Source: a virus. Taken from it: a stretch of DNA of 48,149 bases. The stretch is taken from IMG/VR virus record IMGVR_UViG_3300030107_006089, positions 1 to 48,149 of that record; one strand, 5' to 3'. Below, piece after piece: positions 6,322 through 37,088 of this stretch. Both the position numbers and the translations under genes were made by a program. The notes below the pieces were generated by a model, which worked only from the letters and a program-made list of their open reading frames with translations, did not search any database and was not told the origin of the DNA. The stretch's first letter is position 1. Each line of letters opens with the position of its first letter.

Positions 6322-6741
6322 ATGAGCGTACATTTTAGTAGTAAGACCGATCAGTGGTCTACACCCCAGGATTTGTTCGATAGCTATGACAAACTGTGGG
6401 GATTTGAACTGGATGTTTGTGCTCTACCAAGCAATGCCAAATGCCGGAAATACTTCACACCGGAAGACGATGGGCTTGCTCAACAGTGGTCTGGTGTGTG
6501 CTGGATGAATCCACCGTATGGAAGAGAGATCAAGAAGTGGATGAAGAAAGCCTACGAAGAATCCCAACGTGGATGCACAGTGGTTTGCCTGGTTCCTTCT
6601 AGAACAGACACCGCTTGGTGGCATGACTACGCAATGAAAGGACAAGTGATCTTTCTAAGGGGAAGGCTCAAGTTCGGTGACGCTAAGAACTCTGCACCCT
6701 TCCCGTCAGCAATCGTGATCTTCAAAGGAGACAACAAGTGA
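6322..6741 (+). CDS. Phage DNA N6-adenine methyltransferase (139 aa)
   Basis: A compact Dam-type enzyme that transfers a methyl group from S-adenosylmethionine to adenine N6. The catalytic NPPYG motif is at residues 63-67. The N-terminal pattern (SKTDQWSTPQDLFDSYDKLWGFELDVCA) and the later GRLKFGDAKNSAPFPSAIVIF are hallmarks of the short phage N6-adenine methyltransferase family (PF05869 type), and the length is usual for it. No cognate nuclease gene is seen, so it is an orphan enzyme, probably protecting phage DNA from host restriction. Leader AACACCACAGAGGACACA. Its stop overlaps the GTG of the next gene. Confidence 0.93.
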   Translation: MSVHFSSKTDQWSTPQDLFDSYDKLWGFELDVCALPSNAKCRKYFTPEDDGLAQQWSGVCWMNPPYGREIKKWMKKAYEESQRGCTVVCLVPSRTDTAWWHDYAMKGQVIFLRGRLKFGDAKNSAPFPSAIVIFKGDNK

Positions 6742-7484
6742 ACGAACAAACCTCAACCATGATCAAGAAAGCAATCGGAAGCCATGCTGTCTTCTTAGCA
6801 GTGCGGCACGACCCTGAACTCGTAGGGAGATTCAAGAAGACTGAAGCCGGAACCCTTTTCATGGATGGAGACAAGATCAATAAAGCCAAACTGGCTTCTG
6901 TCCTCATCTACCTGACGGGCAAGTGGGGCATGCGGCCTACCGAGTTTGAGTTGTACACAGGGATTCTGGGTGCCTCTCAAGAAGTAAAGGTCGAACGCAA
7001 GAAGAACTCACTGCCTGAAAGAGAAGTGCAGTGGGCCAAAGAAAAGCTGACCAGGGATCACGTTGCCATGTCTACAACTGACATCATCGAGCAACTGCCC
7101 GCAGGAATGCTGATGCAAGGACGGAGCGGTGAGATGAGACTGGCTCGTATCCTCGATGAACTGGGCTGGGAGAGAAAGAGAACCATGATCCACAACATCA
7201 GAGCCTATCGATGGTATCCGCCAGAAGACTGGGTGTTCCCAGATGTAGAGGCTCCTCAAGCAAAGAACCTTGAGAACGTCGTGGATTACTTCGACCACAT
7301 CGAAGACGAAAGCATTGTGCCCCCTGAGATGGAAGTAAGGCAAACAGATGGCCGATGGACACATCCAGTCGCTGAAGACGATGAGCCAGAAGACAAGGTT
7401 GAGCTGGACCCATGGGGAGATCCCGTAGGCGTCATCAAAGAAGCAAACGAAATCAAACACTTCTACGAAGAGGATGAGGAATGA
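6738..7484 (+). CDS. Phage protein of unknown function, possible winged-helix domain (248 aa)
   Basis: GTG start at 6738 overlaps the previous stop (GTGA); AAAGGAG lies 9 bases upstream. The N-terminal half is helical. Residues about 98-160 (REVQWAKEKLTRDHVAMSTTDIIEQL... RLARILDELGWERKRTMIHNIRAYRW) look like a winged-helix fold similar to those at the ends of phage primase/VapE proteins. The last 90 residues are very acidic. A replication-accessory role fits but is not proven. Confidence 0.7.
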   Translation: MNEQTSTMIKKAIGSHAVFLAVRHDPELVGRFKKTEAGTLFMDGDKINKAKLASVLIYLTGKWGMRPTEFELYTGILGASQEVKVERKKNSLPEREVQWAKEKLTRDHVAMSTTDIIEQLPAGMLMQGRSGEMRLARILDELGWERKRTMIHNIRAYRWYPPEDWVFPDVEAPQAKNLENVVDYFDHIEDESIVPPEMEVRQTDGRWTHPVAEDDEPEDKVELDPWGDPVGVIKEANEIKHFYEEDEE

Positions 7485-7582
7485 ACAAGAACGATTATGA
7501 CCTGGCCGATATAGCCATGGGTGTCATAGCCCTCGGTATTCTCACATGGGTTTTAGGCTCAGCGCTCATCTCTTTGCTGTAA
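7481..7582 (+). CDS. Small single-span membrane protein (33 aa)
   Basis: ATGA overlap with the previous stop and a GAGGATGAGGA ribosome-binding region. Translates to MNKNDYDLADIAMGVIALGI followed by LTWVLGSALISLL: a polar N-terminus and a hydrophobic helix of about 20 residues. Small membrane proteins of this kind are common in phage early operons. The function is unknown. Confidence 0.5.
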   Translation: MNKNDYDLADIAMGVIALGILTWVLGSALISLL

Positions 7583-7660
7583 GATACAAATGACTTGCAC
7601 ACTGTAAGGAAGCATATTTCAACTGGGTTGTGCTTCTGGGTGTGAAGACGGCGGCGCAGG

Positions 7661-7839
7661 GAGGCATGGCCGTGGTCAAACAGATGCCTCAAACATTATG
7701 GGTCGCCACCCTTCCACTTATAAATAATGGTGGGGTGTTCAGAAAAATCTGGGTGGCGACTCACCCTCTTATGAGCCACTGCTTACGAACCGAAGTCTAA
7801 TGACGATTAGGTGGGCGGCAAGTTTGTGGTGGCTCACCT
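7661..7839 (+). ncRNA. Structured noncoding stretch, candidate small RNA or structured 3' UTR
   Basis: Between 7583 and 7988 no gene is supported, but several stems line up: GAGGCAT/ATGCCTC (7661-7667 with 7684-7690), GTCGCCACCC/GGGTGGCGAC (7702-7711 with 7751-7760, perfect 10 bp) and AGGTG/CACCT (7809-7813 with 7835-7839), followed directly by the terminator stem at 7846. The spacing and the terminator suggest a transcribed, folded RNA. No known RNA family is recognised. Confidence 0.4.
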
Positions 7840-7845
7840 TTTCTC

Positions 7846-7921
7846 GGAGGCGACGGGATCAACTAAACACTGGAATCCGCCAGGGTTTTTGTACCAGGCT
7901 CCCGTCGTCTCCATCTTTTTT
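7846..7921 (+). terminator. Terminator with a long 13-bp stem and internal hairpin
   Basis: GGAGGCGACGGGA (7846-7858) pairs with TCCCGTCGTCTCC (7900-7912; one G-U) and is followed by ATCTTTTTT. The large loop contains a further CTGG/CCAG hairpin (about 7870-7883). It separates the methyltransferase operon from the next promoter. Confidence 0.7.
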
Positions 7922-7933
7922 ATGTTATCTCTA

Positions 7934-7962
7934 TTGACAACACAAAAAGCACAGACTATTCT
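7934..7962 (+). promoter_or_regulatory. Strong sigma70-type promoter for the helicase operon
   Basis: Perfect TTGACA (7934-7939), 17 bases, TATTCT (7957-7962). It starts 13 bases after the preceding terminator and leads into the AACACCACA leader of the gene at 7989. Confidence 0.8.
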
Positions 7963-7988
7963 CTCTAAACACCACAATAGGAGGACGC

Positions 7989-8264
7989 TTGAAACACGGA
8001 GAAGTTCGAAACAGAAGGATGGTTTGCCACTCAAGGCCGAGAGAAATCTCGGTGTGGTTCGCCAAAAACTGTGAATCAACAAATGATGTTCAACCTGCAT
8101 GGTCAGGATTCTTAGAACAGACATACGCAGAGATTTACTGTGCCTTCTGTGACGAGTGGATCAAATGTAGGGGGGTTGGAGGAACCCTCAAATGGGTAGC
8201 TGTTCATAGTGACGGCGGCTGCAGAAAGAACAAAGAACACAACACCACACTGGAGATCAAATGA
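7989..8264 (+). CDS. Hypothetical protein with Cys pair (91 aa)
   Basis: Probable TTG start at 7989 with a full AGGAGG (7979-7984) 4 bases upstream; no ATG is better placed. The protein holds a YCAFCDEWIKC segment (C-x2-C-x5-C, near residues 54-62) and a further Cys near the end (DGGCRKN), suggesting one zinc site. The function is unknown. Overlaps the next start (ATGA). Confidence 0.65.
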   Translation: MKHGEVRNRRMVCHSRPREISVWFAKNCESTNDVQPAWSGFLEQTYAEIYCAFCDEWIKCRGVGGTLKWVAVHSDGGCRKNKEHNTTLEIK

Positions 8265-8704
8265 TCGAGATTACAAATGAGCAAGACATTACGTTCAACG
8301 TGAGAGTCGTTTATCGAGGCGGTTCATACGGACTAAACGACGAACTTATCTACCAAAACGATGAGCCACTCGTAGAGTTCTACGACACCAGGTACAAACA
8401 AGCGGATACGGACTGTGGCTACCGTGGTCAGTTTATCTGCCGATACCTGCTGACAACATTGCAAGACCACACGGACAGGTGGCCTGAGACTACCACGCTG
8501 GCACTCTTGGGTGGTCAGCCACAATGGTCAATCACTGGCGGGAATGTGCGTGAAGCTGTGAAGTATGCGCTCAAAGGAATGCTGGCTGTAAGAGATCCAG
8601 GGTCGGAAGAACGACGACTCCGCAGGATGCTCAAGTCAGCACTAAACAAGATCGATTCGCTCGAGGCTGAGATTCAGCAGCTCAAGACGATGGGAGGTGA
8701 GTGA
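8261..8704 (+). CDS. Hypothetical protein with C-terminal coiled coil (147 aa)
   Basis: ATG overlaps the previous stop; CTGGAGATCAA gives the ribosome-binding site. N-terminal two thirds is mixed alpha/beta (MIEITNEQDITFNVRVVYRG...). The last 40 residues (EERRLRRMLKSALNKIDSLE) form a heptad-like coiled coil ending ...QQLKTMGGE. It may pair with the helicase encoded next, with which it is coupled (TGATG). Confidence 0.7.
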   Translation: MIEITNEQDITFNVRVVYRGGSYGLNDELIYQNDEPLVEFYDTRYKQADTDCGYRGQFICRYLLTTLQDHTDRWPETTTLALLGGQPQWSITGGNVREAVKYALKGMLAVRDPGSEERRLRRMLKSALNKIDSLEAEIQQLKTMGGE

Positions 8705-10125
8705 TGACTATGGCGCATGCCAAGGTGGTTGGGGGTGGGCAATACCTGCACCCCGACTGCCCCGTTCTCGATGAGATTGTGGATCGATTCAAGATGCGCA
8801 ATCCTGAGTATGGGCGTGCGCAGTCTTTAATCAGGAGCGGCAAGTATGTAGACCTACCAGAGGAATACATCTACGCTGCCCGTGAACTGCCTTACTCCCA
8901 CCCATGGGCAGGCGGCCTTCAGGTTCCAAGGTGCGTTGACTTGAGAAGCTATGGCTTCGAGAACCACGTTCGAACCAGCTACCCAGCAGCTAGAAAGGTC
9001 AACCTCGAGCCCCACATCAAACTGAGAGACTACCAGTATCTGGCGATTAAGAAGTTCGTCGAGGTAGATAGCCATGCGCGAGACGCAGTGGTCGTAGCAC
9101 CATGCGGTGCCGGAAAGACAACTATCGGCATTGGAACCATTGCTGCTGTGTCATCGCCAGCGCTTGTGCTTGTTCACACGTTGGACTTGGCTACACAGTG
9201 GGTGACTCGATGCAGACAACAACTGGGAGAGGAGGCTCTTCTGATTGGTGGAGGCAACAGTTCATCTAAGAAAGACTGGGACAGCCAAGAGAAAGATGCA
9301 CGCATTGTCGTTGCAACCTTCCAGACGATGTACAAATGGACGTGGGAGGAACGATACAACTTCGGCAAGCACTTTGGCTTGGTCATTGTAGACGAAGCGC
9401 ATCACGTCCCAGCCAACACATTCACTGAGATTCTGATGACGTTAGGCGCTCGATTCAGACTCGGACTGACCGCTACTCCTGAGCGGGCTGATGGACTGAC
9501 CAACATGCTTCATTGGAGTCTTGGAGAAATCATTCACGAGGTAACTACTCCTGAGCTGATTGAGCGAGGGCTGGTCTTGGCTCCTCGAGTAGTGAACGTG
9601 AATACAGGATGGAAGCCACCACAAAAGGAAATGGAGTACACCAAGATGATTAGCGCCATGTGCGGTAATGAGGATCGTACTCAACTCATACTCGACACTG
9701 CCCGACGTGCCGTGAACAACGGACGCCAGGTTCTGGTTCTTTCAGACCGAGTTCAACACTGCATCGACATGGCAGAGAAGATGAGTTCTGTCTGCATCAG
9801 CGCTGCGCTAGTTGGAAAGGTCAGCAAGAAGAAGAGAGAAGAGATTCTAAAGAAAGCAGATGAAGGAGAGATTCGAGCCCTGTTTGCTACGACAGTAGCT
9901 GATGAGGGTCTTGACCTTCCAGGCTTAGACACAGTCATACTGACATCACCGAGCAGTGCGATGGGACGCATCCAACAACGCATTGGTCGAATCATGAGAA
10001 CTAAAGAAGGCAAGCAAGAGCCACTCGTCATCGACCTGGTTGATGAAGGTGGACGATTCTATGGCGCGGCCAAGAAAAGGCGGCGGCTGTATTCAAGCCT
10101 TGGATGCAAGATGGGAGTTAGCTAA
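8704..10125 (+). CDS. SF2 DNA/RNA helicase, DEAH box (473 aa)
   Basis: ATP-driven nucleic-acid translocase of helicase superfamily 2, UvsW/type III restriction-subunit-like. Seen: Walker A PCGAGKTT near residues 133-140, DEAH near 230, LTATPERAD near 255-263 (motif III), ATTVADEGLDLPGLD (motif V) and QRIGRIMR (motif VI), so both RecA lobes are complete. The ATG at 8704 overlaps the previous stop and is 6 bases from GGAGG; a GTG at 8701 is an alternative. The N-terminal 100 residues are specific to this protein. A role in replication-fork or recombination-intermediate processing is inferred from UvsW. Confidence 0.9.
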   Translation: MTMAHAKVVGGGQYLHPDCPVLDEIVDRFKMRNPEYGRAQSLIRSGKYVDLPEEYIYAARELPYSHPWAGGLQVPRCVDLRSYGFENHVRTSYPAARKVNLEPHIKLRDYQYLAIKKFVEVDSHARDAVVVAPCGAGKTTIGIGTIAAVSSPALVLVHTLDLATQWVTRCRQQLGEEALLIGGGNSSSKKDWDSQEKDARIVVATFQTMYKWTWEERYNFGKHFGLVIVDEAHHVPANTFTEILMTLGARFRLGLTATPERADGLTNMLHWSLGEIIHEVTTPELIERGLVLAPRVVNVNTGWKPPQKEMEYTKMISAMCGNEDRTQLILDTARRAVNNGRQVLVLSDRVQHCIDMAEKMSSVCISAALVGKVSKKKREEILKKADEGEIRALFATTVADEGLDLPGLDTVILTSPSSAMGRIQQRIGRIMRTKEGKQEPLVIDLVDEGGRFYGAAKKRRRLYSSLGCKMGVS

Positions 10126-10259: not shown

Positions 10260-10658
10260 ATGGTCAACAAAGTAGTACTAATAGGCAATCTGGGTCAGGA
10301 TCCAGAAGCCCGTCAGACCAACTCAGGCACGACGGTTACCAACTTTCGCTTGGCAACCAACGAGCGACGGAAGGTGAACGACGAATGGACAGACCATACT
10401 GAATGGCATTCAGTTGTCTGCTTTGGCAAGACGGCAGAGAATGTCGCTAAGTATTGCAGGCGAGGCAAACAGGTCTACATCATGGGCCGGATTCAAACTC
10501 GTAAGTGGCAAGACAAGGAAGGCAATGATCGCTACAGCACTGAGATTGTAGCCGACGACATCAAGTTCCTTGGTGGCCGAGACGAGGCTGCTTCTACAAA
10601 TGGAAGAGCACCAGCTCAACAGTCCCAGTCTGTGAACCTGGACGACATTCCATTCTAA
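10260..10658 (+). CDS. ssb: Single-stranded DNA-binding protein (132 aa)
   Basis: OB-fold SSB that coats single-stranded DNA during replication and recombination. N-terminal MVNKVVLIGNLGQDPEARQT and the following FRLATNERRK...TEWHSVVCFGKTAENVAKY are classic bacterial SSB sequence over residues 1-105. A short linker leads to the acidic tip DDIPF that recruits partner proteins. Length is slightly short because the linker is brief. AGGAGG at 10247-10252 lies 7 bases before the ATG. It stands between the helicase and primase genes. Confidence 0.97.
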   Translation: MVNKVVLIGNLGQDPEARQTNSGTTVTNFRLATNERRKVNDEWTDHTEWHSVVCFGKTAENVAKYCRRGKQVYIMGRIQTRKWQDKEGNDRYSTEIVADDIKFLGGRDEAASTNGRAPAQQSQSVNLDDIPF

Positions 10659-10668
10659 ATAAAAACGC

Positions 10669-10741
10669 TGGGGTGTAGTTCAATTGGCAGAACGCCTGAC
10701 TGTTAATCAGGAGGTTGCAGGTTCGAGTCCTGCTGCCCCAG
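10669..10741 (+). tRNA. tRNA-Asn (anticodon GTT)
   Basis: Complete cloverleaf: acceptor TGGGGTG/TGCCCCA (two G-U pairs near the base), D arm GTTC...GAAC, anticodon stem CCTGA/TCAGG around loop CTGTTAA (anticodon GTT), and T arm GCAGG TTCGAGT CCTGC. Discriminator G; the 3' CCA is not encoded (CCT). Layout matches bacterial tRNA-Asn. It could supply asparagine codons in late genes or mark an attachment site; no integrase is seen. Confidence 0.95.
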
Positions 10742-10757
10742 CCTCTTTGGAGAGACG

Positions 10758-12858: not shown

Positions 12859-14214
12859 GTGCCTGATCTTGATAAAGTACTTGCGAATAAAGAGAACAAC
12901 CTAAGAACACTTATTCAGACCGCTAAACAGCAGGGGCCTATTGGGACCAAACCGATTGCTGTAAACGGCCAGATGCGTGTGATAGGAAACGCGGCAGCAG
13001 TAGGTCAACCTGAATCAAAGGTGGTCAATCTACTAGACACATATGTCACTAAGAATGGAGACATGGCTTTTAGGCCAAGCCGACGAAACGCTTACTTGGT
13101 CTTGTGCAACGACACTAGAGTAAGAGGAAAGATTTGGCACGATGACTTCAAAGGCACGTTGATGCGCAGCCAGGAGGAATACAAAGACACTGACGATACC
13201 AAGCTACAGATGTGGCTTGAGGGCATCTACGGAATGAGGATGTCAACTGGGACGGTTTCTGAAGTGGCTCGACTTGTTGGAGAAGAGTTCTCTCGGAATC
13301 CTTTGCACGAGTATTTAGAGGGCTTGCAGTGGGATGGAATACCGCGCATCGATACCTGGCTGATTCGTGGAGTTGGAACCATGGATACAAGGCTTGTTCG
13401 AGATGTAGGCAAGCGATGGCTTATCTCTGCAGTGGCAAGAGCCATGCAGCCTGGGTGCAAGGCAGACACTGTACTCATCTTTGTGGGACCACAAGGCGCA
13501 AAGAAGAGCACTTGCTTTCGAGCGCTGTGCGGAGACGAATACTTCTGTGACACGCCGATGGATATCGGATCTCCAAACGCCTACAGTCAGATTCGTAGAG
13601 CGTGGATTTACGAGGTTGCTGAGCTTGATTCAATCCGAAGGTCTGCCAACAGTGCAACCAAGGCGTTTCTTACAGCTCAAGAAGACACATACAGGCCAGC
13701 ATACGGAAGACATGCAGTCACAACAAAGAGACACTGTATCTTCTGTGGAACAACAAATGAACAGTCATTCATTTCTGACATGACAGGTTCGAGGCGGTTC
13801 TGGCCAGTTCGAGTAGGGACTGTAGATCTCCAGTGGATCAAAGACAATCGAGATCAGTTGTGGGCCGAAGCGATGGCGGCTTACAAGAGAGGAGAAATCT
13901 GGTGGCTTGAGAATGAGTCGGAGAGTGAGTTGCAGAAAATATCTGAGGACTACCGACAGATTGATCCGTGGCAACCAATGATAGAGCATTGGTTGGTAGC
14001 CAAGAGCAACGTCACAGTCACAGAGGTAATGCAGGAAGGACTGAAGCTTGATCCAAACCAAATGAGCAAGTTGGCTCAAATGAGAGTTTCAGACATCCTT
14101 CGCCACCTGGGCCTAAGTCGTGTGAGGAAGACTCGATTAGGCAAGAGGTGCTATGTTTGGTCGAGGTTTGAGTCGAAAGATACAGATGAAGAAGATGAGC
14201 ACGCCGATTTCTAA
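12859..14214 (+). CDS. VapE/VirE-family replicative ATPase-helicase (451 aa)
   Basis: GTG start with GTAGAGG just upstream. Matches the virulence-associated E family (PF05272 type), an AAA-like superfamily 3-related ATPase of phages and phage satellites. Seen: Walker A GPQGAKKST at 210-218, an acidic Walker B-like region (YEVAELDSIRR) and the typical CIFCGTTNEQSFISDMTGSRRFWPVRVG arginine-finger region. The C-terminal 90 residues form a winged-helix-like tail (VSDILRHLGLSRVRKTR). It likely unwinds DNA with the preceding primase. Confidence 0.9.
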   Translation: MPDLDKVLANKENNLRTLIQTAKQQGPIGTKPIAVNGQMRVIGNAAAVGQPESKVVNLLDTYVTKNGDMAFRPSRRNAYLVLCNDTRVRGKIWHDDFKGTLMRSQEEYKDTDDTKLQMWLEGIYGMRMSTGTVSEVARLVGEEFSRNPLHEYLEGLQWDGIPRIDTWLIRGVGTMDTRLVRDVGKRWLISAVARAMQPGCKADTVLIFVGPQGAKKSTCFRALCGDEYFCDTPMDIGSPNAYSQIRRAWIYEVAELDSIRRSANSATKAFLTAQEDTYRPAYGRHAVTTKRHCIFCGTTNEQSFISDMTGSRRFWPVRVGTVDLQWIKDNRDQLWAEAMAAYKRGEIWWLENESESELQKISEDYRQIDPWQPMIEHWLVAKSNVTVTEVMQEGLKLDPNQMSKLAQMRVSDILRHLGLSRVRKTRLGKRCYVWSRFESKDTDEEDEHADF

Positions 14215-18090: not shown

Positions 18091-18165
18091 AAAAAGTAGG
18101 GGCGGTCACGTCGGGAATGCTTGCTGTAGGGTTCTGCAAGCGACCGTGACCGCCCCCTTTATTTA
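18091..18165. terminator. Bidirectional terminator between early and late regions
   Basis: GGGGCGGTCACG (18099-18110) and CGTGACCGCCCC (18145-18156) form a perfect 12-bp stem enclosing a second hairpin GCTTGC/GCAAGC (18119-18124 with 18136-18141). The left flank is A-rich (AAAAAAAGTA) and the right flank T-rich (TTTATTTAT), so it can stop transcription in both directions. It lies exactly where the + and - gene blocks converge. Confidence 0.9.
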
Positions 18166-26684: not shown

Positions 26685-29600
26685 TTACCATTCTTCATAG
26701 TTTAGTCCCTGCCTAACTCTAGAGCCACGACGAAGCCTTTCTTCTTCAGCCTGCTCTAGGACTTTTATGTGGTCTTCTTGTTGTTCTGCAGTGTACGTCT
26801 GTTCGACGTTTGGATCAGTAGTAAGGGCTGCTTGGCGTTCTTGCATAAGCATTCTGTTCTTAGCTCTTGTCTGAGCCCTGGCTCTTACAGTGCTTCGTGT
26901 TGGAAGATAAACTGGCTTGATTCCAAACATTCCAGCAAGCTCTGACAAACTGAATTCTGTTGCCTGTTTTTCCATCAACTTTGTAATGACATCATTCAGG
27001 TGGACTTTATATTCGCCTTTTGCGTTTTTCATCCAAACATCTTTTACACCAGCCGACGCCGCTTTGGCGCGAACTTCATCTTCAGTCATGTCGCTTGTAA
27101 GAGTCAGCTCCATCATGTTGATTCGAGGATGAAGCTGTCTCATCGGCCTGTCTAAAGTATGCCGGGCTGACATTGGATCACCCTGTCTATCAATATATGC
27201 TGTTGGATCGGCCCTCATTTCAGACCATGTTGCACCAAACGGTTTGAGAATAGGTCTGTCTAACTTACGAGATGCGGCTCTTGTTGCGGCAACAAACGCT
27301 TCTAAAAGGCCCATGTTGGACCTATCCAGCCAATTGAAAGTATCCATTGACCTACCGCCACCAGGGGTTTGCATAAGATTGCGCCAAATCCACCAAGCTT
27401 TTCCGTTTTTAGCGTGGAACCAGCCTTGTTCTGGTAAACCAACTTGGTCTGCTTTAGTGGCATCCAAATGACTTCTTGGAGTAACGTCAAAGAGTCCATC
27501 AACAAGCATTCCGCCAGAAATTGCTCTGTCAAGCTCAACAAGCCAAGGCGGAACCTTGTTGTAGTCATCAAGAGATCTGTTGTAGAAAATATCTTGACCT
27601 GTTGCCATGACAGGAAGAGCTTGAATGTGTGGCATAAATCGTGACGCCAAACCACGAATAGCATCTCCTCTGCTTTCGCCTCCCACAAACGGAATCACTC
27701 CAGTATCCACAATGTCTACATACAAGTTCAAAACATCCATCATTGGAAGAGGCGGCGTAATGTAGGCTATTTGTGCATTTCTTTGCGTGTTTATCTGCGT
27801 GTTTCTAATAAACACGGGAAGCCTATTGATCTGATACTCCCTCATCATGATCTCTGGATCATCACTAAGATAAACCTGCTGCACACCACGAACCATTCTA
27901 ATCTGACCAATGAGTCGGGCTGGGTTGGTAAGCAATGTCTCCCAGAAATGATCAAGGTTCTTTCTCAGGTAGGAATAGAACATGATCAAGTTGCGGCCAA
28001 CCATCTTTTCTGTTTCGCTTAGATCGGCGTAATCATACAGAAACTTTCTTGCTCGTTCTGCCGCATGAGCTGGAGTAAATCCTCTTTCAAGGTAATCAAG
28101 GAAAATGCTTACGCGATAGAAATTGTCTATCGCGGTGGCTGTTTCAACAAGAGTCCTTTGCCATTCACGACCTCCGCGACCAACAGCTTTTGCCCATGCT
28201 GGTTTTCCTGAAAACATCCTTTCAAGGTCTTTATTTAAAGACTGAATTGTTTCAGCATGAATAAAACTTGATTTTAGTCCAGCGTTTTCAGTCAACCGAA
28301 TAAGCTCTTCCGTTGAATAGACCATTCCATGTCTGGTCACTAGCGGTGGAGCATCAGGCGAATAATCAATAGCAATTCTGCGACCATTCTTTGTAAGGCC
28401 GTCTTTATACAATGCCATTACAATCGCTTTCGTTTGAGCAGCGTTTCTAAACAAAGCTCTGATTGTTCCAGTAATGCCCATTCCTTGGTACATCTGGAAG
28501 AACCCGCCCATTCCAACACCCATATAGTAAGCAGGGTTTGGAATTCCGATTCCGGTAGTTACGCCCATTCGAACGTTTCGAAAGGTCATAGGAAACAAAG
28601 AGGCAAGAGTTTGAAGCCCCTCGTTGACACCCATTCCAGCCTGTACGGGCCACTCTTTTCCCTTAAGCTTTTCACTAACTTTTTTAGTTAATTTTTCTGT
28701 GCCTCGAGTAGCAGACTTTGGACCATAAGCAGAACCAATCCGAGATACTCGGTCATAGGCATTTTCAATTTCCATAACCACAGCAGAGGGCATAAACATT
28801 TCTTGCCCATCAGGGGTGGTGTATCTTTCGAATCCTCTTTTCGATGGCTCCATACCAAGACGATCAAGAATGCCCATTGCGGCTTCATAAGCCATCATGT
28901 CGTGGACATTATTGAGAGTGTCTCTTGGAAAAAGGTTGTCTGCTGCTCTAGTAATTTCGTCAGCGGGAAAAATGCCTGCTGTTGTAGAGTCTTGTCGTGG
29001 TGCGTCTGGAAAAACTTGGTATTGGTACTCTACTTCTCCGCTTTCTACTTCTTGGAAATAGACTTTTCTTGCTAACAAATAACTCTGCTCTTGATCTAGA
29101 TACCAAAGAACCCTTTGGTAGTAGAGCTCCTCATTAATACCAATATATTCAGCGCCCTCTGGTCCTTGTTCAAGAATCTTGCCTCGTCCGACTCTGGCAA
29201 TGTCCCATGTGCTAAGACCGATTCCTGATCTAAGAAGAGCCCTGTTTAATCCTTCAACCAGGTCCATGCATCGAAGCCGAGCCATGACTTCCATCATTGC
29301 AAGGCCGGGATTAAAGTTGGGCATTTGATCGGGTCTTGTACCAACCTTGGTTTTAAAGTTGTTGGACACATAAACCATCAACTCATCGATCTTTCCTGTA
29401 TAGAACAAACTGTAGACAGCCCCCAAATCAACGTCTGGGACTCTATCGGCTAACTCAACACCCATTCCACCAATGAATGCTCCAAGAATGACTCGACCGC
29501 GCTGTATTACTGCTTCTTCTTTTTCTTTTACGCTTTTTCGTAGACGATAAAGGGCATCTCCCATGGCACGACGGTCTGCTTCAGAAAAGTCTGGAGTCTT

Positions 29601-32600
29601 TCCTTCTTCAAAAGCCTTGTACGCTTTTCGTCTATAAAGGCCAAGAATTCTTAGGGCTTCTCGTTCTTGTTCTCTAAGTCGTCGTTTTTGAGGCCCTCCC
29701 CTTCCGGTCAAGTCTCGACTCGTAATGATGTCTTGAAGCTCTTCTAAGCTATCAAGAATCTCAATGAGCATAGAACCTTGCTCAATATCAACTTCCGTTC
29801 CATCTATAGGATCTACAGCATCTTTGGGGTTTTGCGGAATGTATGAATCGCTATCAATATCAGCATTTCTAAGTTCTTGAACAAACGAGTCAAACCGTTC
29901 TCTAAATGGTTCAACGAACTCGATTCCTTTGCTTTTGTCCTGTCTGGAACCAAGAAGCCTTGTAACTTTTGCAGGATCCACTGGCGCTTGAAACATGTGC
30001 TCGAAAAAAGCAAACAACTCGCCTTCATCAATCTCTACATCAGAACGCATTGCGCGAACAATAAGAGCCCTAAAATCTTTATCTACGTTTCCAATCTGAG
30101 CGATGATCTCGTTGAGAGCTTCAACTGCTTCTGGATTTAAGTCTCCACCAGCAAACTGTTCCTTCTTAAGAGTAGAAAACCAAGACCTAAGCTTGGTCAT
30201 TACGTTGTCGCCTGAGTCTGGACCAAACCTCTCAAGGGCTCCTGAGCCGTTTTGTTTAAGAGCGTTCCACCAAACATACCCAAGTGATTTTGGTATCTTG
30301 TGTGTATAGCTAGTCTGACGAGCTGCGGGGCCAGCAAGAACATCTACTGTTGCTGTTTGAATCGCATTCCATTCATCTGCAGTTACCGTATTTAGGTCTC
30401 TGTCCCAATCGGTAATGTGCTTTCCAGTTCCTGCAGGAATAGCCTCTAAGGTTGCAGCACCAAGAGGTTCTCTTGCAAGAGATCGGATGTGAATCCTTAG
30501 ACCTTCTGCCTCGAAATCGTTGAATGTAAAAGTGTTGGTAGATGGATCATAGTTCTTGCTTGGATCGTTGTGCCCAAAGATTTCTCCGAACATCTCATCT
30601 ACAGCTTTTTGGATTTCTTTAACCCTGTTTCTTGGAACAATGCTTCTGGTTGTCATTGGAACCATATCCATTGGATGTCCAAATGTTTTCCGTGCATGTT
30701 CTCCGCTTACATAGCCAAGAATCCTTGCAAACAGATCCACAGGATCAACTTCGGATTCTCCTGGCCTGTATCCAATTGCCTGCAGAACGTTCTCAAGCCT
30801 TCTATCTATTTGGTAAAAGGTTCTTTTCTGAGCCTGTGCAATAGCCGATTCTTCTTCCAAAGCCTTTTCTGTTTCAAGCCTAATTTTGTCGCCAGGAAAA
30901 GTTCGACCCAACTTAGAAGTCATGTCGGAAACGTCTCTTCTAAGAGCCTCCTCTGGCCGCAAAAACCTATCCCAGAATGCGCGAGTCTTTGGATTGATTG
31001 TAGACAAACCACGCTGGCGATGCTTGATCCAAAAATCTTGCATGCTTCTATACAGATCGTCCATGGCTCGAGGACTGATTCCGTCTGGAGTTTCAAGCGT
31101 ATTGACGTAGTTCTCAAACACATCCGCAGCATGAGCTGCACCAGATGGAGTCAGCACTGGAGAAGTCTTTCCTGAATGGTCAAAGTTCTTAGCAAACGCT
31201 TTGTACCAGGTCTCGCCCATGAGTCTTGCTATGAGCCTTCCATTTGCTGAAAACAGCTTTCTAAAATCACCAGTCTGAAACAACTCTGTAAGATGAAAAA
31301 CATCTTCATTGGTCATCAGCAATTCATCTAAGACATCATCAGGGTTGCTGTACCTGACCTCATATCTGGAGGTTTTCCTGGGAACCTTGTCAACGTCACT
31401 TCTGTATGTAGAAAACAAGTATGGTTCAATGTCTCTTGGAACAGACCCGGTTTTCCCGCCGGAAATAATATACTTTCTAAAATCTTGAGTAGACCACAGT
31501 CTTTCATTTAGCTCGTATTGTTTGATAACCGCATCAGCCAAATTCAGTTTTTCAATCAACGGAAGATCGTCAACTGCTTGAATCCAATCAGGAGCGATTC
31601 TTTCGTTTGTTCGCAGTGGACCAAACAACTCTAAACGCAAGTCTGCGTTTCGCCATGGAACATTAAGTCTATCGACATCGCCAATGCCAAGCACTGACGC
31701 ATCAGCCCCACTTGGACGACCCATTACTGCAACCAAGGAAACAGCGGTTTCGAAATCATGACCGAAGGCCATGAACTCGCCTACTTCAGAAAGAACCTCA
31801 TTGATGGCCTTCTGCGACGACTCATTCTCTGAAAAGTCAAACCTTCCTTCTCTGATCTTGTTTTGAAGGACTTCAAAGATTCTTCGGTTGTTTTTAGAAA
31901 TGCTTTCAGGGGTGTTCTTGATTGGTCCAGAAACCGCTGAAGACATTTCTTTTACGATAAAATCAAGAGCAGCCTGCCTTCGAAACAGGGCTTCTCTTTC
32001 CGCAAAAGACACATCAGAACCGATGCTTATTTTTCCTTCAATAAGCCTTTCTGAAATGTCCAAAATTTCTGGTGGAAACTCTTCAGCGACCTTCTCGTTT
32101 CTAATGTATTTCATCAAGGCTTTGAACTTCTTAACGAAAGCGTCGAATGTCTTTTTCCAATAACTTTTGTTTTCTGCAAACTCTTTTTGAGCCATCAAAG
32201 ACTTAGGAAGTTCTTTAGTAATCAAATAGTCAGACAAAGTATCAGCAAGCCACTCTGAAAAGGTTGCTTCAGTACCGTACCTTCCCCTGAAATCGTCAGA
32301 CCTTGACCATTCTGGAAATCCTTTTTGAGCTTCACGCAAATATGCCGTTCTTAAGGCTCTGATGTCTGTTTCTGGAAGGAAGCTATAATGAAGAGCATGA
32401 ACTAATTCATGAATGAAAGTTGAAGCTCTCGTTTCTGGATCGGAAAGAGCCAGCATTTCATTCTTAGTCAAACGAGCAATCGTTTCGCTTATTAGCTCAG
32501 CAGCTTTGATTCTTATCGGATCTTTTCCTGGGGCACTCCATTTTTTGCTAATCTTTCCAACTTTCAAGGTCATTTGCGATGCAAGAGCTAATATAATTTT

Positions 32601-35600
32601 TTCTTCTTGACCTGCAGCGCCAGGACCAAAAACCCTGTCCATGACTTGTTGAGCTGAATGAGAAATGTGTCTTCCCAATTTTTCTTTCAATTTGTTTGTG
32701 ATTATTCTTTCAACTTCAAGCCTTAAAAAAGAGTTGTCAGGCCTGGACATAAGTGTTTCGGTCCAACCGACAATGTCATCAAATACTTTATCGACTTCTT
32801 CGGCAAACAGCTCACCGAATTGCTTGAAGTCAATATCTGCAAACTCTTCAATCGGGCCTTCGTTTAAAGGCTTGGCGAAGTTCATTTTAATTTCGCCAGT
32901 TTTGACGCTGTAAAAGCCTAAAGTAGAAACACCAGCGTCTAAGTCTAAAGAACCGGAATCCGACAGGAAAACTTTCCTAAACAATTGATCAGGAAGAATG
33001 TCAACAAAAGCCATCGTCAACAAGTAGTTAGGCTCATCGATGAAGCCTTCCTCATGCCAAAGTGTCAGCTTTTCTTCGAACTCCCTTCTTTGTTTTTCGT
33101 ATTTTTTAGTAGGGCCAGCGTCCATCAATGAGTCAGCGTCATCGGCTTTTACAACCCTAAGCCTCTTTACAGCCACTCCGCTAACGTCTTCAACCTCGGC
33201 TGATTCAACTACAGAATAGGGCGCTTTAGGTTTTTTCAGCACGCCTTTGAGTCTCTTCTGAAACTGAGCAGACAACTCAACATCAGAAAAAACAATCGCT
33301 GCATCAATGTCTGGAAAGGAATCAACCATCAACTCGATTTGAGAAAGAATAGAATCCAGGGTGACATCTGCAACACTGAAATCTTTGCCCTCAAAAAGAG
33401 GCTTGGCGTCTGCTCCTTCTAGGGTTCTGATTTTAAAAGTAAGCCTATGATTTGGCCCGCCTTTATCAGTCTGCTCCATAAAAACAGAAATGACTGGTTT
33501 TCCGTCAGGACCATCGATAACAACAAAGAGATCCATTGATTCTGGTACTGGGGCTTCACCTTCTTTTAGTCGCCAAGGACCATCGGCTTCTCCTCGCATT
33601 ACCTCTTTTAGGACAGGATCTACTTCACCATTTCTTCGAATGACGCTTCTGCGCAAAGGCCGTTCTGTATATCCTTTGCTGTTTGCTTTTGGAGAAAACT
33701 CAATTGGCTTGCCTAAACCAATATCAAAGTCAATCCAAACGCCGAGACTGCCTAAATCAGGGTCAAACTTTCTCGGACCAAAATCGGTTTCAATAGTGGT
33801 CGGCCTACCGGAATGAGTTGGTGGCGGAGCAGTTGGTGTTTCTCCTGCTTCTGGATCAACATCAACATCAGGGTCGGCCTTCTTAGGCTCAAAACCGTCT
33901 CTTTCAAACTTGATACTGACGTATTCAAAGAACTCAATGGGATCGTAGATTCGATCTTCCATCGCATATCGCCAAGCTTGTTTTTCAAGGCTTGTAAGAA
34001 TCGTTGGAATCTCTGCCCGATCAATAAGCCCTTTGTCGGCAGCGTTATACAGCTCAGTTTCTACACGCTTATATGCATCTGATTGACGTGTATTAATAAT
34101 GTTCGGATCGCCGTAAGTAAGCAAATGCTCAATAGTTTTGAGCGCTACACCTTTTCTTTTTGCGGCAGTGTTCTTGAGGTTCTTTAAAATCGTTTGTCTC
34201 GGAGTGCCGGTAACGATTTCATAGATAGCCAGAACTTCATTCAGAACGTGACTTGGAACGGTTTCAAGAAACTTTTCCGCCTCGATGCTGTTGAGGGAAT
34301 TGTGAGCCATAAGCTCAATGCCTCTTGAGGCCAAGGCATAAAGATCTTTGTGCTTAATTTCAGGGATTGAGTTTATTGAATCCCCAAAACCATCTCCGGT
34401 TTCTTTCATGCGAGAGATTACAGCATCTAAAACTCTTCGCTCATGAACACCAAGCCGGTCATCGTCAGAACGACTAAGCCTTTCCAAGGCTTCGACATTG
34501 TCTAAATCGGCGTCACCAACAATGTCTCGAAGATGATTTACGGCCCGAGCGACTTCTAAATCTACACTAAACCGTTTAGACCTCAGCCTCGGAAACATTG
34601 CAGACAATGTGGCGTCTAATCTAAACGCTACTGTGGGTTTCTTTTTGGCATCGCCAGGTTTCTTTTTGGCATCGCCAGTAAATAGGCCCTCAGGATTCCA
34701 GCCCCCCTCGTCGTCTGCCCAGAAACTCTTTTTTCCTGTTGGGTGGCTCCAATAACTCCATGTGTTCCAACCCCTATGGGCGGTTCTATAAACTTGACCA
34801 GTAGCCCAAAGAGGCGGCGCTTCCCAAGGAACCAACCAATCTGCAAGGATTCCAACGTTACCCCAGAACAGGAACTCTCCAGAGTTTCTATCAACACCCT
34901 TGGCATACATGAGGTCGGTCATGTGCCTAGAAAGACCCATCTCGCCAGTGTAAATGTTGGCAAGAACACGAGCTAAATAAGACGTGTTTGGATCCCTTAC
35001 TCGTTTGTTTGGAGACCGGGCAAAGTCGATCCCTGCTGGAGTAAATGGAAGAGGAGCTTCCATAAAGACTTCTTGAAATCCACCAGCGACACGCATGATT
35101 CTGCCGATGCTGCTTTCTTGGATAACGATTTCGCCATTTTCAATGGCGGTTTCCATAAAAATCGTTCCAAATGCTCTTGCTGCGGGAACCGTTGTTCTTC
35201 CGCCACCCGTAAAGATTGCATCTATGTCCGCACCAGCCGCAAGCAAAATGGAGTCCATAAAGCTTTGTTCAGACGGAATAAGGTTGTCTAAAAGCTCAGG
35301 GAGATACTTTGCAATCAAACCAATCGGAACAGCACGAAGGTGCCTACGAATTTCGTGGTCAGTAAGTTCGTTGTTCTGAACAGCTATAAGAATCGTTCGA
35401 ATCGCTGGAGGAACATCCGATTGAGTGAGCTCATCGTACTTTTGCTGGCCGAGAAGCTTAAACTTAGCAAGGTCTAATCTGCCTCGAATAACGTGCTCAG
35501 GCATTTCTGAAATAGTAAGACCAAGGATAAGGTGTCGAACAGCGTTCTTTACATCTTCATCTTTAGATGCTTGTTCAACAGACATTCCATTGTCTAAATA

Positions 35601-37088
35601 TACACGAACAGATTCGATTACCCTGTTCCAAGTTTCCGCTGGTCTCGTCCTATTAATCTCGAGCTGAAGACGCCTAGCATCTTCTTCATTGTCAGCGAAA
35701 AAAGGAATGTATTGATCAGCGATGCCGGTAAGGATTTGAAACCGCGTTGATAAGTCTACAAGACCTTGTGGTGCTTTGATTTGAGCAAGGAGGCCATCTC
35801 TTCCCATTGGAATGCCTCTCCAGAAATCTGGAGTGTTTCTAGATGTCCTTGACAATCCGTAGCCAATAAAGCCAAACAGTAGAGCCGAGCCAGTAATCTT
35901 TAAAGCGCCACCGCCAGAAAACTTTCTAAGCCCTTTAAATCCTGGGTATTTTTTACCGCCAGCGTCTGGTGCAAGCCAATAGTCAGCAGGCCCCACTCTC
36001 GGAGGAAGCTTGCCTTGATACTTGTGCCCTTCTGGAAGAAGAACAGTTGCTTTGACTTCTGGATAAAGCCATTGACCAAGACGGGTTTGAGCAGGCCCTT
36101 TTACTTTTCCGCCGGGGGCAACCGCCTCAACGGCCTTGGATGCTGTGTATCTAAGAGGGCTTCTTGTAAACGGGTTGGCTTTAACTGATGGAATAAAGTA
36201 CGGAGTGCCCGTAACTTTTGTTGCTGCCCAAGCTTGCGGTCTTCCTGTGACCAATGACGCGCCAATAATACCAGCACCAACTCCGACTGTTCTATCAATC
36301 CAGTCTGCACCGTTCTGAATCGCGTCAATATCAAAACCTAAGTTTTGAGCCTCCTCTCCAGTCATCATGGTCTGACGACCCATTGCCATAGCAAATGCTG
36401 GGAGAATGCCCTCGGCTCTCATTGCGGTATCGATATCTCGAGCCAATTGGCGACGATTTTCAAACCTTGCTTGAGGTGTTGGAGTTGCTTCAGCAATATC
36501 AATTGTTCGATAATTGAAGATCCCTGAAGCCATAGTAAGCGTGCTTACGTTGTTTTTTAGAGTTGATGGAATCAGGCTGGCATCGATGTCATCAATCATA
36601 GACTCGATTTCGCTGTCTTCAGCTCCAGCATCTATCGCATCATAAATTCCAAAGACAGCGCTGTCAGGATTGGTAGTAAGCCTCAACCCCTCACGCCTTT
36701 CTCCATATCTATTTTTAAAATCTGAAAGACTGGGCTTTGTTCTTTCTGGTATTCCGTGCAGGTTTCCAGAAAACTCTTCGTTGCCTACATGGGCAAATTC
36801 AAGTTTTCTCCTTGCTAATTTAAGTGCGTCTTCTCGACTGAGGTTGTCGTCGATTCTCATCGATTCATCAGCAAGCGCTTTAATCGTCTCCTCTGCCTGG
36901 TTCGACATCTCAAGAGGAGTGACACCAGGAAGCGCAGGAGATGAAACCTCACCGGCAATTTCCATCTCTGACGCGGTTACTGACCTGCCAGATCTTGGTT
37001 CTCTTTCTCCAAGAAGCCTTGTTTCTTCTTGAAGTTCTCGCTCTGCTCTCCATATTCGAGCCCGTCTTTCTTCTGCAGTTTCGGCCAT
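26685..37088 (-). CDS. Giant virion protein with zinc metalloprotease motif (3467 aa)
   Basis: The largest gene of the window, without visible interruption. Starts MAETAEERRARIWRAERELQ. A hydrophobic stretch near 396-415 (ALKITGSALLFGFIGYGLS) could be a membrane span. An acidic/Pro linker lies near 1075-1095. A zinc metalloprotease motif HELVHALH is at 1560-1567, with a following EWLADTLSDYL that may add the third ligand. The C-terminal third (about 2800-3200) has a long helical segment (FLYDYADLSETEKMVGRNLI... MFYSYLRKNLDHFW) like those in large internal virion proteins of podoviruses. Likely packaged in the capsid and ejected into the host. It follows the 941-residue gene after 13 bases. 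Confidence 0.8.
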   Translation of the reverse strand: MAETAEERRARIWRAERELQEETRLLGEREPRSGRSVTASEMEIAGEVSSPALPGVTPLEMSNQAEETIKALADESMRIDDNLSREDALKLARRKLEFAHVGNEEFSGNLHGIPERTKPSLSDFKNRYGERREGLRLTTNPDSAVFGIYDAIDAGAEDSEIESMIDDIDASLIPSTLKNNVSTLTMASGIFNYRTIDIAEATPTPQARFENRRQLARDIDTAMRAEGILPAFAMAMGRQTMMTGEEAQNLGFDIDAIQNGADWIDRTVGVGAGIIGASLVTGRPQAWAATKVTGTPYFIPSVKANPFTRSPLRYTASKAVEAVAPGGKVKGPAQTRLGQWLYPEVKATVLLPEGHKYQGKLPPRVGPADYWLAPDAGGKKYPGFKGLRKFSGGGALKITGSALLFGFIGYGLSRTSRNTPDFWRGIPMGRDGLLAQIKAPQGLVDLSTRFQILTGIADQYIPFFADNEEDARRLQLEINRTRPAETWNRVIESVRVYLDNGMSVEQASKDEDVKNAVRHLILGLTISEMPEHVIRGRLDLAKFKLLGQQKYDELTQSDVPPAIRTILIAVQNNELTDHEIRRHLRAVPIGLIAKYLPELLDNLIPSEQSFMDSILLAAGADIDAIFTGGGRTTVPAARAFGTIFMETAIENGEIVIQESSIGRIMRVAGGFQEVFMEAPLPFTPAGIDFARSPNKRVRDPNTSYLARVLANIYTGEMGLSRHMTDLMYAKGVDRNSGEFLFWGNVGILADWLVPWEAPPLWATGQVYRTAHRGWNTWSYWSHPTGKKSFWADDEGGWNPEGLFTGDAKKKPGDAKKKPTVAFRLDATLSAMFPRLRSKRFSVDLEVARAVNHLRDIVGDADLDNVEALERLSRSDDDRLGVHERRVLDAVISRMKETGDGFGDSINSIPEIKHKDLYALASRGIELMAHNSLNSIEAEKFLETVPSHVLNEVLAIYEIVTGTPRQTILKNLKNTAAKRKGVALKTIEHLLTYGDPNIINTRQSDAYKRVETELYNAADKGLIDRAEIPTILTSLEKQAWRYAMEDRIYDPIEFFEYVSIKFERDGFEPKKADPDVDVDPEAGETPTAPPPTHSGRPTTIETDFGPRKFDPDLGSLGVWIDFDIGLGKPIEFSPKANSKGYTERPLRRSVIRRNGEVDPVLKEVMRGEADGPWRLKEGEAPVPESMDLFVVIDGPDGKPVISVFMEQTDKGGPNHRLTFKIRTLEGADAKPLFEGKDFSVADVTLDSILSQIELMVDSFPDIDAAIVFSDVELSAQFQKRLKGVLKKPKAPYSVVESAEVEDVSGVAVKRLRVVKADDADSLMDAGPTKKYEKQRREFEEKLTLWHEEGFIDEPNYLLTMAFVDILPDQLFRKVFLSDSGSLDLDAGVSTLGFYSVKTGEIKMNFAKPLNEGPIEEFADIDFKQFGELFAEEVDKVFDDIVGWTETLMSRPDNSFLRLEVERIITNKLKEKLGRHISHSAQQVMDRVFGPGAAGQEEKIILALASQMTLKVGKISKKWSAPGKDPIRIKAAELISETIARLTKNEMLALSDPETRASTFIHELVHALHYSFLPETDIRALRTAYLREAQKGFPEWSRSDDFRGRYGTEATFSEWLADTLSDYLITKELPKSLMAQKEFAENKSYWKKTFDAFVKKFKALMKYIRNEKVAEEFPPEILDISERLIEGKISIGSDVSFAEREALFRRQAALDFIVKEMSSAVSGPIKNTPESISKNNRRIFEVLQNKIREGRFDFSENESSQKAINEVLSEVGEFMAFGHDFETAVSLVAVMGRPSGADASVLGIGDVDRLNVPWRNADLRLELFGPLRTNERIAPDWIQAVDDLPLIEKLNLADAVIKQYELNERLWSTQDFRKYIISGGKTGSVPRDIEPYLFSTYRSDVDKVPRKTSRYEVRYSNPDDVLDELLMTNEDVFHLTELFQTGDFRKLFSANGRLIARLMGETWYKAFAKNFDHSGKTSPVLTPSGAAHAADVFENYVNTLETPDGISPRAMDDLYRSMQDFWIKHRQRGLSTINPKTRAFWDRFLRPEEALRRDVSDMTSKLGRTFPGDKIRLETEKALEEESAIAQAQKRTFYQIDRRLENVLQAIGYRPGESEVDPVDLFARILGYVSGEHARKTFGHPMDMVPMTTRSIVPRNRVKEIQKAVDEMFGEIFGHNDPSKNYDPSTNTFTFNDFEAEGLRIHIRSLAREPLGAATLEAIPAGTGKHITDWDRDLNTVTADEWNAIQTATVDVLAGPAARQTSYTHKIPKSLGYVWWNALKQNGSGALERFGPDSGDNVMTKLRSWFSTLKKEQFAGGDLNPEAVEALNEIIAQIGNVDKDFRALIVRAMRSDVEIDEGELFAFFEHMFQAPVDPAKVTRLLGSRQDKSKGIEFVEPFRERFDSFVQELRNADIDSDSYIPQNPKDAVDPIDGTEVDIEQGSMLIEILDSLEELQDIITSRDLTGRGGPQKRRLREQEREALRILGLYRRKAYKAFEEGKTPDFSEADRRAMGDALYRLRKSVKEKEEAVIQRGRVILGAFIGGMGVELADRVPDVDLGAVYSLFYTGKIDELMVYVSNNFKTKVGTRPDQMPNFNPGLAMMEVMARLRCMDLVEGLNRALLRSGIGLSTWDIARVGRGKILEQGPEGAEYIGINEELYYQRVLWYLDQEQSYLLARKVYFQEVESGEVEYQYQVFPDAPRQDSTTAGIFPADEITRAADNLFPRDTLNNVHDMMAYEAAMGILDRLGMEPSKRGFERYTTPDGQEMFMPSAVVMEIENAYDRVSRIGSAYGPKSATRGTEKLTKKVSEKLKGKEWPVQAGMGVNEGLQTLASLFPMTFRNVRMGVTTGIGIPNPAYYMGVGMGGFFQMYQGMGITGTIRALFRNAAQTKAIVMALYKDGLTKNGRRIAIDYSPDAPPLVTRHGMVYSTEELIRLTENAGLKSSFIHAETIQSLNKDLERMFSGKPAWAKAVGRGGREWQRTLVETATAIDNFYRVSIFLDYLERGFTPAHAAERARKFLYDYADLSETEKMVGRNLIMFYSYLRKNLDHFWETLLTNPARLIGQIRMVRGVQQVYLSDDPEIMMREYQINRLPVFIRNTQINTQRNAQIAYITPPLPMMDVLNLYVDIVDTGVIPFVGGESRGDAIRGLASRFMPHIQALPVMATGQDIFYNRSLDDYNKVPPWLVELDRAISGGMLVDGLFDVTPRSHLDATKADQVGLPEQGWFHAKNGKAWWIWRNLMQTPGGGRSMDTFNWLDRSNMGLLEAFVAATRAASRKLDRPILKPFGATWSEMRADPTAYIDRQGDPMSARHTLDRPMRQLHPRINMMELTLTSDMTEDEVRAKAASAGVKDVWMKNAKGEYKVHLNDVITKLMEKQATEFSLSELAGMFGIKPVYLPTRSTVRARAQTRAKNRMLMQERQAALTTDPNVEQTYTAEQQEDHIKVLEQAEEERLRRGSRVRQGLNYEEW
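34636..34680 (-). repeat. 21-bp direct duplication within the giant gene
   Basis: The minus-strand protein reads GDAKKKPGDAKKKP near residues 803-816, encoded by two near-identical 21-base units. It is an in-frame Lys-rich linker expansion, probably by slippage. Confidence 0.6.

What the first reader, a model, noticed from the sequence alone, without database searches (positions are those of the whole stretch)
7583..7921. Folded noncoding stretch ending in an unusual terminator: candidate phage small RNA
Four stems in 260 bases (7661-7690, 7702-7760, 7809-7839, 7846-7912), including a perfect 10-bp and a 13-bp helix, in a 405-base gap in otherwise compact DNA, followed by a strong promoter. 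Phages rarely keep so much gene-free structured sequence without function. It may be a regulatory RNA, a defence decoy or a structured 3' end.
Basis: partly seen in the sequence, partly recalled or inferred. Interest (0 to 1): 0.65.

Follow-up and report, generated by a model that had tools for sequence, protein, structure and literature searches.

The report
Conserved pseudoknot RNA after phage replication genes
The gene-free stretch is a real, conserved folded RNA whose core is a small unreported knot-like structure that many uncultivated phages carry just behind replication genes, where relatives often have an ordinary transcription stop signal instead.

Summary
Window 7584-7921 (+) folds far better than shuffled sequence (z -5.1) and ends in a U6 tract 12 nt before a conserved TTGACA-17-TATTCT promoter. 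The interpretation needs recasting. The pseudoknot (PK) recurs in more than 130 distinct phage loci with strong covariation in both helices and is absent from Rfam. It lies in sense between a stop codon and the next replication gene: gp32-like SSB to uvsX, an OB-fold SSB-like gene to polA, or the window's upstream family to helicase. In loci chosen by protein alone it follows 44 of 69 gp32-like and 17 of 25 OB-fold SSB-like genes; 21 of the 25 gp32 loci without it carry a textbook intrinsic terminator there. Other window hairpins (7699-7763, 7846-7912) covary in polA phages. Best reading: a modular 3' UTR built around a pseudoknotted terminator/attenuator-like element. Rival: an SSB-responsive operator, as in T4 gene 32. 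No independent sRNA promoter was found. Function is inferred, not shown.

The parts
6738..7484 (+). Upstream gene (UP family, 248 aa; relatives 360-480 aa); its homologues carry the pseudoknot behind them and the helicase gene after it
   Evidence: tblastn synteny, ORFs, gap sequences; AlphaFold model mostly helical with a possible winged-helix part, pLDDT 72, pTM 0.39, no significant PDB match
7481..7582 (+). Small ORF of 33 aa, hydrophobic (probable membrane peptide), overlapping the UP stop (ATGA)
   Evidence: ORF kept in both close relatives at 88-91% aa identity
7598..7644 (+). Hairpin 0
   Evidence: MFE; different sequence but pairing arms at the same place in L121/L328 and L183/L343, read by eye
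7652..7690 (+). Pseudoknot (PK): S1 7652-7655/7669-7672, loop GCAGG 7656-7660, S2 7661-7667/7684-7690
   Evidence: recurs in more than 130 distinct phage loci with covariation in S1 and S2
7699..7763 (+). Hairpin X1
   Evidence: 6 of 11 pairs with double compensatory changes over 11 sequences
7772..7836 (+). Hairpin X2, a second version of X; L002 has only an X1-like copy, L003 only an X2-like copy, L121 has both
7846..7921 (+). Hairpin 4 (stem 7846-7858/7900-7912, conserved GTACC internal segment) plus U6 tract: terminator-like end
   Evidence: 3 of 11 pairs with double changes over 14 sequences
7934..7962 (+). Sigma-70-like promoter TTGACA-17-TATTCT for the next gene
   Evidence: 10 of 12 positions; hexamers invariant in the three relatives
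7989..8264 (+). Next gene (91 aa, TTG start, RBS AGGAGG at 7979-7984), no family match

Best explanation
The region is the structured 3' untranslated end of the UP-small ORF transcript. Its most widespread module is a 35-nt H-type pseudoknot that acts as a variant intrinsic terminator or attenuator between co-directional replication genes: the seven-pair S2 helix plus the following U-rich stretch slows or releases RNA polymerase and leaves a protected 3' end, so the upstream gene (most often an ssDNA-binding protein) is made in excess of the gene behind it. The short S1 helix and fixed loop give it a specific shape that probably binds a factor and so makes the step adjustable. In the window, two further hairpins and a strong hairpin with a U6 tract follow, then a new promoter restarts transcription. 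Shown: the structure, its conservation, position and orientation, and its occupancy of the terminator slot. Inferred: termination or attenuation, 3'-end protection and factor binding.
For: Pairing: in 36 sequences of the 35-nt class all 11 pairs form in 100% of cells, all 4 S1 pairs change on both sides, and no slid version comes near; 95% in the 29-nt class. A descriptor fixing only CAGG plus S1 and S2 pairing finds 158 sites in 2.7 Mb of phage loci against 0-15 for ten other tetramers. Position: in sense, often 9-16 nt after a stop and 20-30 nt before the next start. Unbiased sets: 44 of 69 gp32-like loci carry it, and 21 of the 25 others have a classic intrinsic terminator at that spot, the other four mostly other hairpins; 17 of 25 OB-fold SSB-like/polA loci carry it, several others having terminator-like hairpins. 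U-tract after PK: 65% (gp32), 47% and 57% (two SSB-like groups) against 13%, 4% and 2% upstream of other starts in the same loci; 17 of 44 in the unbiased gp32 set. In the window, hairpin 4 ends in U6 just before a conserved promoter.
Against: U-tracts are weak or absent after many PKs, including the window's own and most UP-helicase phages (17%), so PK alone need not terminate. The S2 loop is long for an intrinsic terminator. A plain terminator would not need a fixed GCAGG loop or the G..G/A..A coupling (181 GG, 16 AA, 6 other), which points to a specific partner. Where the next start is only 7-30 nt away there is no room for a new promoter, so full termination is unlikely there. No RNA data were available.
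Confidence: 0.5

Rival explanations
1. PK is a translational operator bound by the phage ssDNA-binding protein: SSB recognises the pseudoknot and spreads into the unstructured leader behind it, repressing translation of the next replication gene, as T4 gp32 does on its own mRNA.
For: PK lies behind three kinds of SSB gene: gp32-like (Pfam gp32), an OB-fold family whose best fold match is the SSB PrgE (PMC11137577) and a Pfam SSB (L039). The layout pseudoknot, AU-rich spacer, RBS, start matches the T4 operator (PMC535899). A second pseudoknot-like motif was found in 7 loci, all right behind SSB-type genes. Mostly one PK per phage contig.
Against: T4's pseudoknot precedes gene 32, this one follows the SSB gene. 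Ordinary terminators replace it in relatives. In the window and UP phages the upstream gene has no SSB match, and the window's own SSB (10260-10658) has a tRNA, not a PK, behind it. In the window hairpins and a promoter separate PK from the next start.
Confidence: 0.2
2. A regulatory small RNA: the 3' UTR is cut out or transcribed as a discrete RNA that acts in trans, the hairpins being its body.
For: Length, modular hairpins and terminator-like end; the whole set is kept in L121, an SSB-like/polA phage. tRNA-like genes sit inside the same slot in L320-L324 and L032, so processing there is plausible.
Against: No promoter-like site upstream; always behind a gene in sense; hairpins gained and lost between close relatives while PK stays.
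Confidence: 0.13
3. PK is a sensor or catalytic RNA: a minimal riboswitch-like aptamer for a host or phage metabolite, or a self-cleaving element that splits the operon RNA.
For: Invariant loop GCAGG, coupled G..G/A..A positions and very small fixed size across unrelated phages resemble ligand-binding pseudoknots in general.
Against: No match to any Rfam riboswitch or ribozyme. It follows genes as strictly as it precedes them and is replaced by plain terminators in relatives.
Confidence: 0.08
4. The signal is at DNA level: a replication origin, recombination or packaging site whose inverted repeats merely look like RNA.
For: Near replication genes, mostly one per contig; recombination scars at PK (half elements in L019 and L057).
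Against: S1/S2 cross-pairing with strand-specific loops, strict sense orientation and stop-to-start placement fit RNA; structure is stronger on the coding strand.
Confidence: 0.05

Closest known systems
Phage T4/RB69 gene 32 translational operator (PMC535899)
   Same: Small H-type pseudoknot, linked to a phage ssDNA-binding protein gene, followed by an unstructured stretch with RBS and start codon
   Different: T4's lies 5' of gene 32; here it lies 3' of the SSB gene and 5' of another replication gene, has its own fixed loop sequence, and is replaced by terminators in relatives
Rho-independent (intrinsic) terminators and leaky intercistronic terminators
   Same: Same slot just after the stop codon; GC-rich helix followed by a U-rich tract, most clearly in gp32 phages and in window hairpin 4
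   Different: PK has a crossing second helix, a long conserved loop and often a weak or absent U-tract
Rfam L17 downstream element (RF01708; PMC2864571)
   Same: A conserved structured RNA in the 3' UTR of a protein gene
   Different: No Rfam match detected; bacterial ribosomal protein gene, not phage replication
H-type pseudoknot riboswitches such as preQ1-I and SAM-II (from general knowledge)
   Same: Topology and small size with conserved loops
   Different: No Rfam match to either; located behind genes as well as before them; ligand unknown

Membership tests
Any Rfam 15 family | Match at or above gathering score | tested here: not met
   Window: only a tRNA. 20 PK-bearing loci: only tRNAs. 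Permissive scans gave chance-level matches only
Intrinsic terminator (PK itself) | GC-rich helix immediately followed by a U-tract | tested here: inconclusive
   Helix always present; U-tract enriched over background but present in only 17 of 44 unbiased gp32 loci and not behind the window's PK
Intrinsic terminator (PK itself) | Causes release of RNA polymerase | not testable with these tools
   Needs transcription assay or 3'-end sequencing
Intrinsic terminator (window hairpin 4) | Stable GC-rich stem followed directly by a U-tract | tested here: met
   13-bp stem 7846-7858/7900-7912, one G-U, then ATCTTTTTT; missed by the simple scan because its loop exceeds 8 nt
T4 gene 32-type SSB operator | H-type pseudoknot | tested here: met
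   Supported by covariation; not probed chemically
T4 gene 32-type SSB operator | Located in the 5' leader of the SSB gene | tested here: not met
   It follows the SSB gene
T4 gene 32-type SSB operator | Bound by the cognate SSB with translational repression | not testable with these tools
   Needs binding and translation assays
Free-standing phage sRNA | Own promoter | tested here: not met
   No sigma-70-like + strand site between 6500 and 7934; other promoter types not covered
Free-standing phage sRNA | Discrete transcript | not testable with these tools
   No expression data available

The most novel reading that the evidence does not exclude
An unreported class of phage RNA: a minimal pseudoknot, shared across unrelated phages, that senses the level of ssDNA-binding protein (or another replication signal) at the 3' end of the SSB message and sets expression of the next replication gene by pseudoknot-controlled attenuation.
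Probability: 0.25. Interest if true: 0.82.

Novelty: new variant of a known kind. Interest (0 to 1): 0.62.

Why it matters
T4 gp32 and its operator pseudoknot are the textbook case of an SSB controlling mRNA, and PMC535899 (2004) notes that it was not known how far other SSB proteins do so. A conserved pseudoknot tied to SSB genes of unrelated families in many uncultivated phages makes that directly testable, and also tests whether pseudoknots can serve as transcription terminators. It adds an RNA motif that Rfam 15 lacks.

Tried and rejected
BLAST of the region and of PK against 50,697 phage records: no region match, only chance PK-length matches. Rfam, permissive and gathering: nothing. The idea that stems 2 and 3 are independent features was dropped: they are two versions of one hairpin slot, and close relatives keep one each. 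The idea that UP is an SSB was not supported: mostly helical model, no significant PDB match. Cellular hosts: 87 pattern matches in 84,980 genomes were mostly chance (7 with S1 of at least 3 bp, of which 3 look real; one of these has the SSB-like/PK/polA order, so is a phage contig). Hits L087 and L089 to the hairpin-0 segment lie in an unrelated reading frame and are chance. Literature searches found no description of this motif. No host could be assigned.

Full report
OBSERVATION. Between the stop codon at 7582 and the next start (TTG at 7989) lie about 406 bases without a convincing gene. The + strand of 7583-7921 folds at -130.6 kcal/mol, z -5.1 against dinucleotide shuffles; the other strand gives z -3.2. 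Folding energy alone is not unique in this genome. The promoter after the region is the only sigma-70-like + strand match in 6500-9000.

CLOSE RELATIVES. Two IMG/VR contigs share the locus at about 97% DNA identity. Their alignment shows the hairpin region evolving as modules: L002 lacks the X2 hairpin, L003 lacks X1, the window has both. L002's X hairpin differs from the window's X1 by two double changes that keep pairing; the outer pair of hairpin 4 is G-C in the window and A-U in L003.

A PSEUDOKNOT IN DISTANT RELATIVES. A search with the primase-helicase protein (12859-14214) brought about 55 phages at 48-60% identity, in which the order UP gene, helicase gene (8701-10125 in the window), primase genes is largely kept. 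The three to six bases before GCAGG are complementary to the bases after GGCATG, which makes an H-type pseudoknot: S1, loop GCAGG, S2 (GAGGCAT), G, S1', loop, S2' (ATGCCTC).

BREADTH AND COVARIATION. With the loci already held, 132 distinct sequences were compared, of which 124 have S1 of at least 3 contiguous pairs and 131 a complete S2. The same pattern in bacterial genomes, where most matches are chance, gave S1 in 7 of 87. In the 35-nt class every S1 pair varies on both sides and all pairs form in all 36 sequences; the slid controls pair in 36-47% of cells. The 29-nt class gives 95%. A descriptor requiring only CAGG, S1 and S2 pairing found 158 sites in 2.7 Mb against 0-15 for other tetramers, and every S2 found had the form RRGGCNY with a matching partner. 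The loci searched there were partly chosen for PK, so this is a test of specificity and of S2 covariation, not of frequency. The first loop base and the base after S2-5' are coupled: G..G 181, A..A 16, six other, suggesting a non-canonical contact.

NEIGHBOURS. The element is in sense between a stop codon and the next start. Upstream genes fall into a gp32-like SSB (Pfam gp32), the UP family, an SSB-like group with acidic C-terminal tails and a few others; downstream are uvsX, polA and helicase. The SSB-like 176-aa family gave a model with a beta-rich core (pTM 0.66) whose only PDB match at E below 0.001 is PrgE, an OB-fold SSB (PMC11137577). The related 192-212-aa group before polA was not folded and is called SSB-like only by its place and tail. 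Small genes inserted between gp32 and uvsX often carry a further PK copy (L168, L187, L212). Most contigs have one PK, those with inserts two or three.

UNBIASED SETS. Because the pattern scan selects for PK, two collections were made by protein only. For the OB-fold SSB-like family, 17 of 25 distinct loci have PK within 111 nt of the stop. For gp32-like proteins, 44 of 69 distinct loci carry the motif, mostly 9-30 nt after the stop; S2 is complete in 41 and S1 has at least 3 pairs in 40. Of the 25 others, 21 have a textbook intrinsic terminator at the same place. The PK thus occupies the terminator slot. U-tracts after PK are enriched over background but far from universal (17 of 44 in the unbiased set).

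THE FULL REGION ELSEWHERE. Contig L121, an SSB-like/polA phage, carries the whole window set: hairpin 0, PK, X1, X2 and hairpin 4; L183 has hairpin 0, PK, X and hairpin 4; L142 has PK and hairpin 4. A scan with the extended PK gave further members; in L320-L324 a sequence with the look of a tRNA-Asn gene lies between PK and X, and L032 has a tRNA-Leu-like gene after its PK (these read by eye, not by a tRNA finder). Over these sequences the X hairpin has 6 of 11 pairs with double changes and hairpin 4 has 3 of 11, with an invariant GTACC in its inner part.

MECHANISM. Taken together the region is a modular 3' UTR. Shown: structure, conservation, sense orientation, placement, exchange with intrinsic terminators, and a terminator-like end in the window. 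Inferred: that PK pauses or releases polymerase, protects the 3' end, and answers to a factor. The main rival, an SSB-responsive operator like that of T4 gene 32 (PMC535899), gains from the link to unrelated SSB families and from a second pseudoknot-like motif seen only behind SSB-type genes (7 loci), and loses from its 3' position and from the UP phages, whose upstream gene has no SSB match.

NOVELTY. No Rfam family, no annotated phage record and no paper in the held library was found to describe it. It is filed as a new variant of a known kind, a structured intercistronic RNA; a regulator-sensing class is possible but unproven.

Noticed in passing
L404:3290, L418:3284, L119 and L112 (minus strand, positions 1010 and 7708 of the reverse complement), L347:3564, L353:3542, L361:3596: A second candidate pseudoknot, CCG-n-TG-GCAGAC-CGG...AGTCTGC, found in 7 loci, all directly behind SSB-type genes of two unrelated families.
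   Followed up: partly
window 10260-10743: The window's own SSB gene (Pfam SSB, 8e-40) is followed 10 nt later by tRNA-Asn; in L320-L324 a tRNA-Asn-like gene sits after an SSB-like gene and PK. tRNA genes seem drawn to SSB 3' ends in these phages.
   Followed up: no
L019:4771-4953 and L057:1568-2172: Half copies of the PK at the ends of genes (UP stop codon fused to ATAGATGCCTC; inserted 168-aa gene ending in GTCGAATAGACGCCTC): recombination scars, suggesting PK sites are junctions for gene insertion.
   Followed up: partly
window 18099-18156: Perfect 12-bp inverted repeat (GGGGCGGTCACG/CGTGACCGCCCC) where the + strand genes meet the - strand genes; lowest z of the first 18 kb; probably a two-way terminator.
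   Followed up: no
L160:1234-1290 (-): In some gp32-uvsX phages S1 could extend to about 11 pairs (ATCTGTAAACC / GGTTTACAGAT), overlapping S2 and reaching the gp32 stop codon: a possible alternative fold.
   Followed up: no
L102, L126, L141, L146, L177: The polA-like gene appears to start 7-10 nt after PK (CTTTTTATGACC) with no Shine-Dalgarno between: possible unusual translation start.
   Followed up: no
window 26685-37088: A single 3467-aa ORF on the - strand, probably a tail or structural protein; not examined.
   Followed up: no
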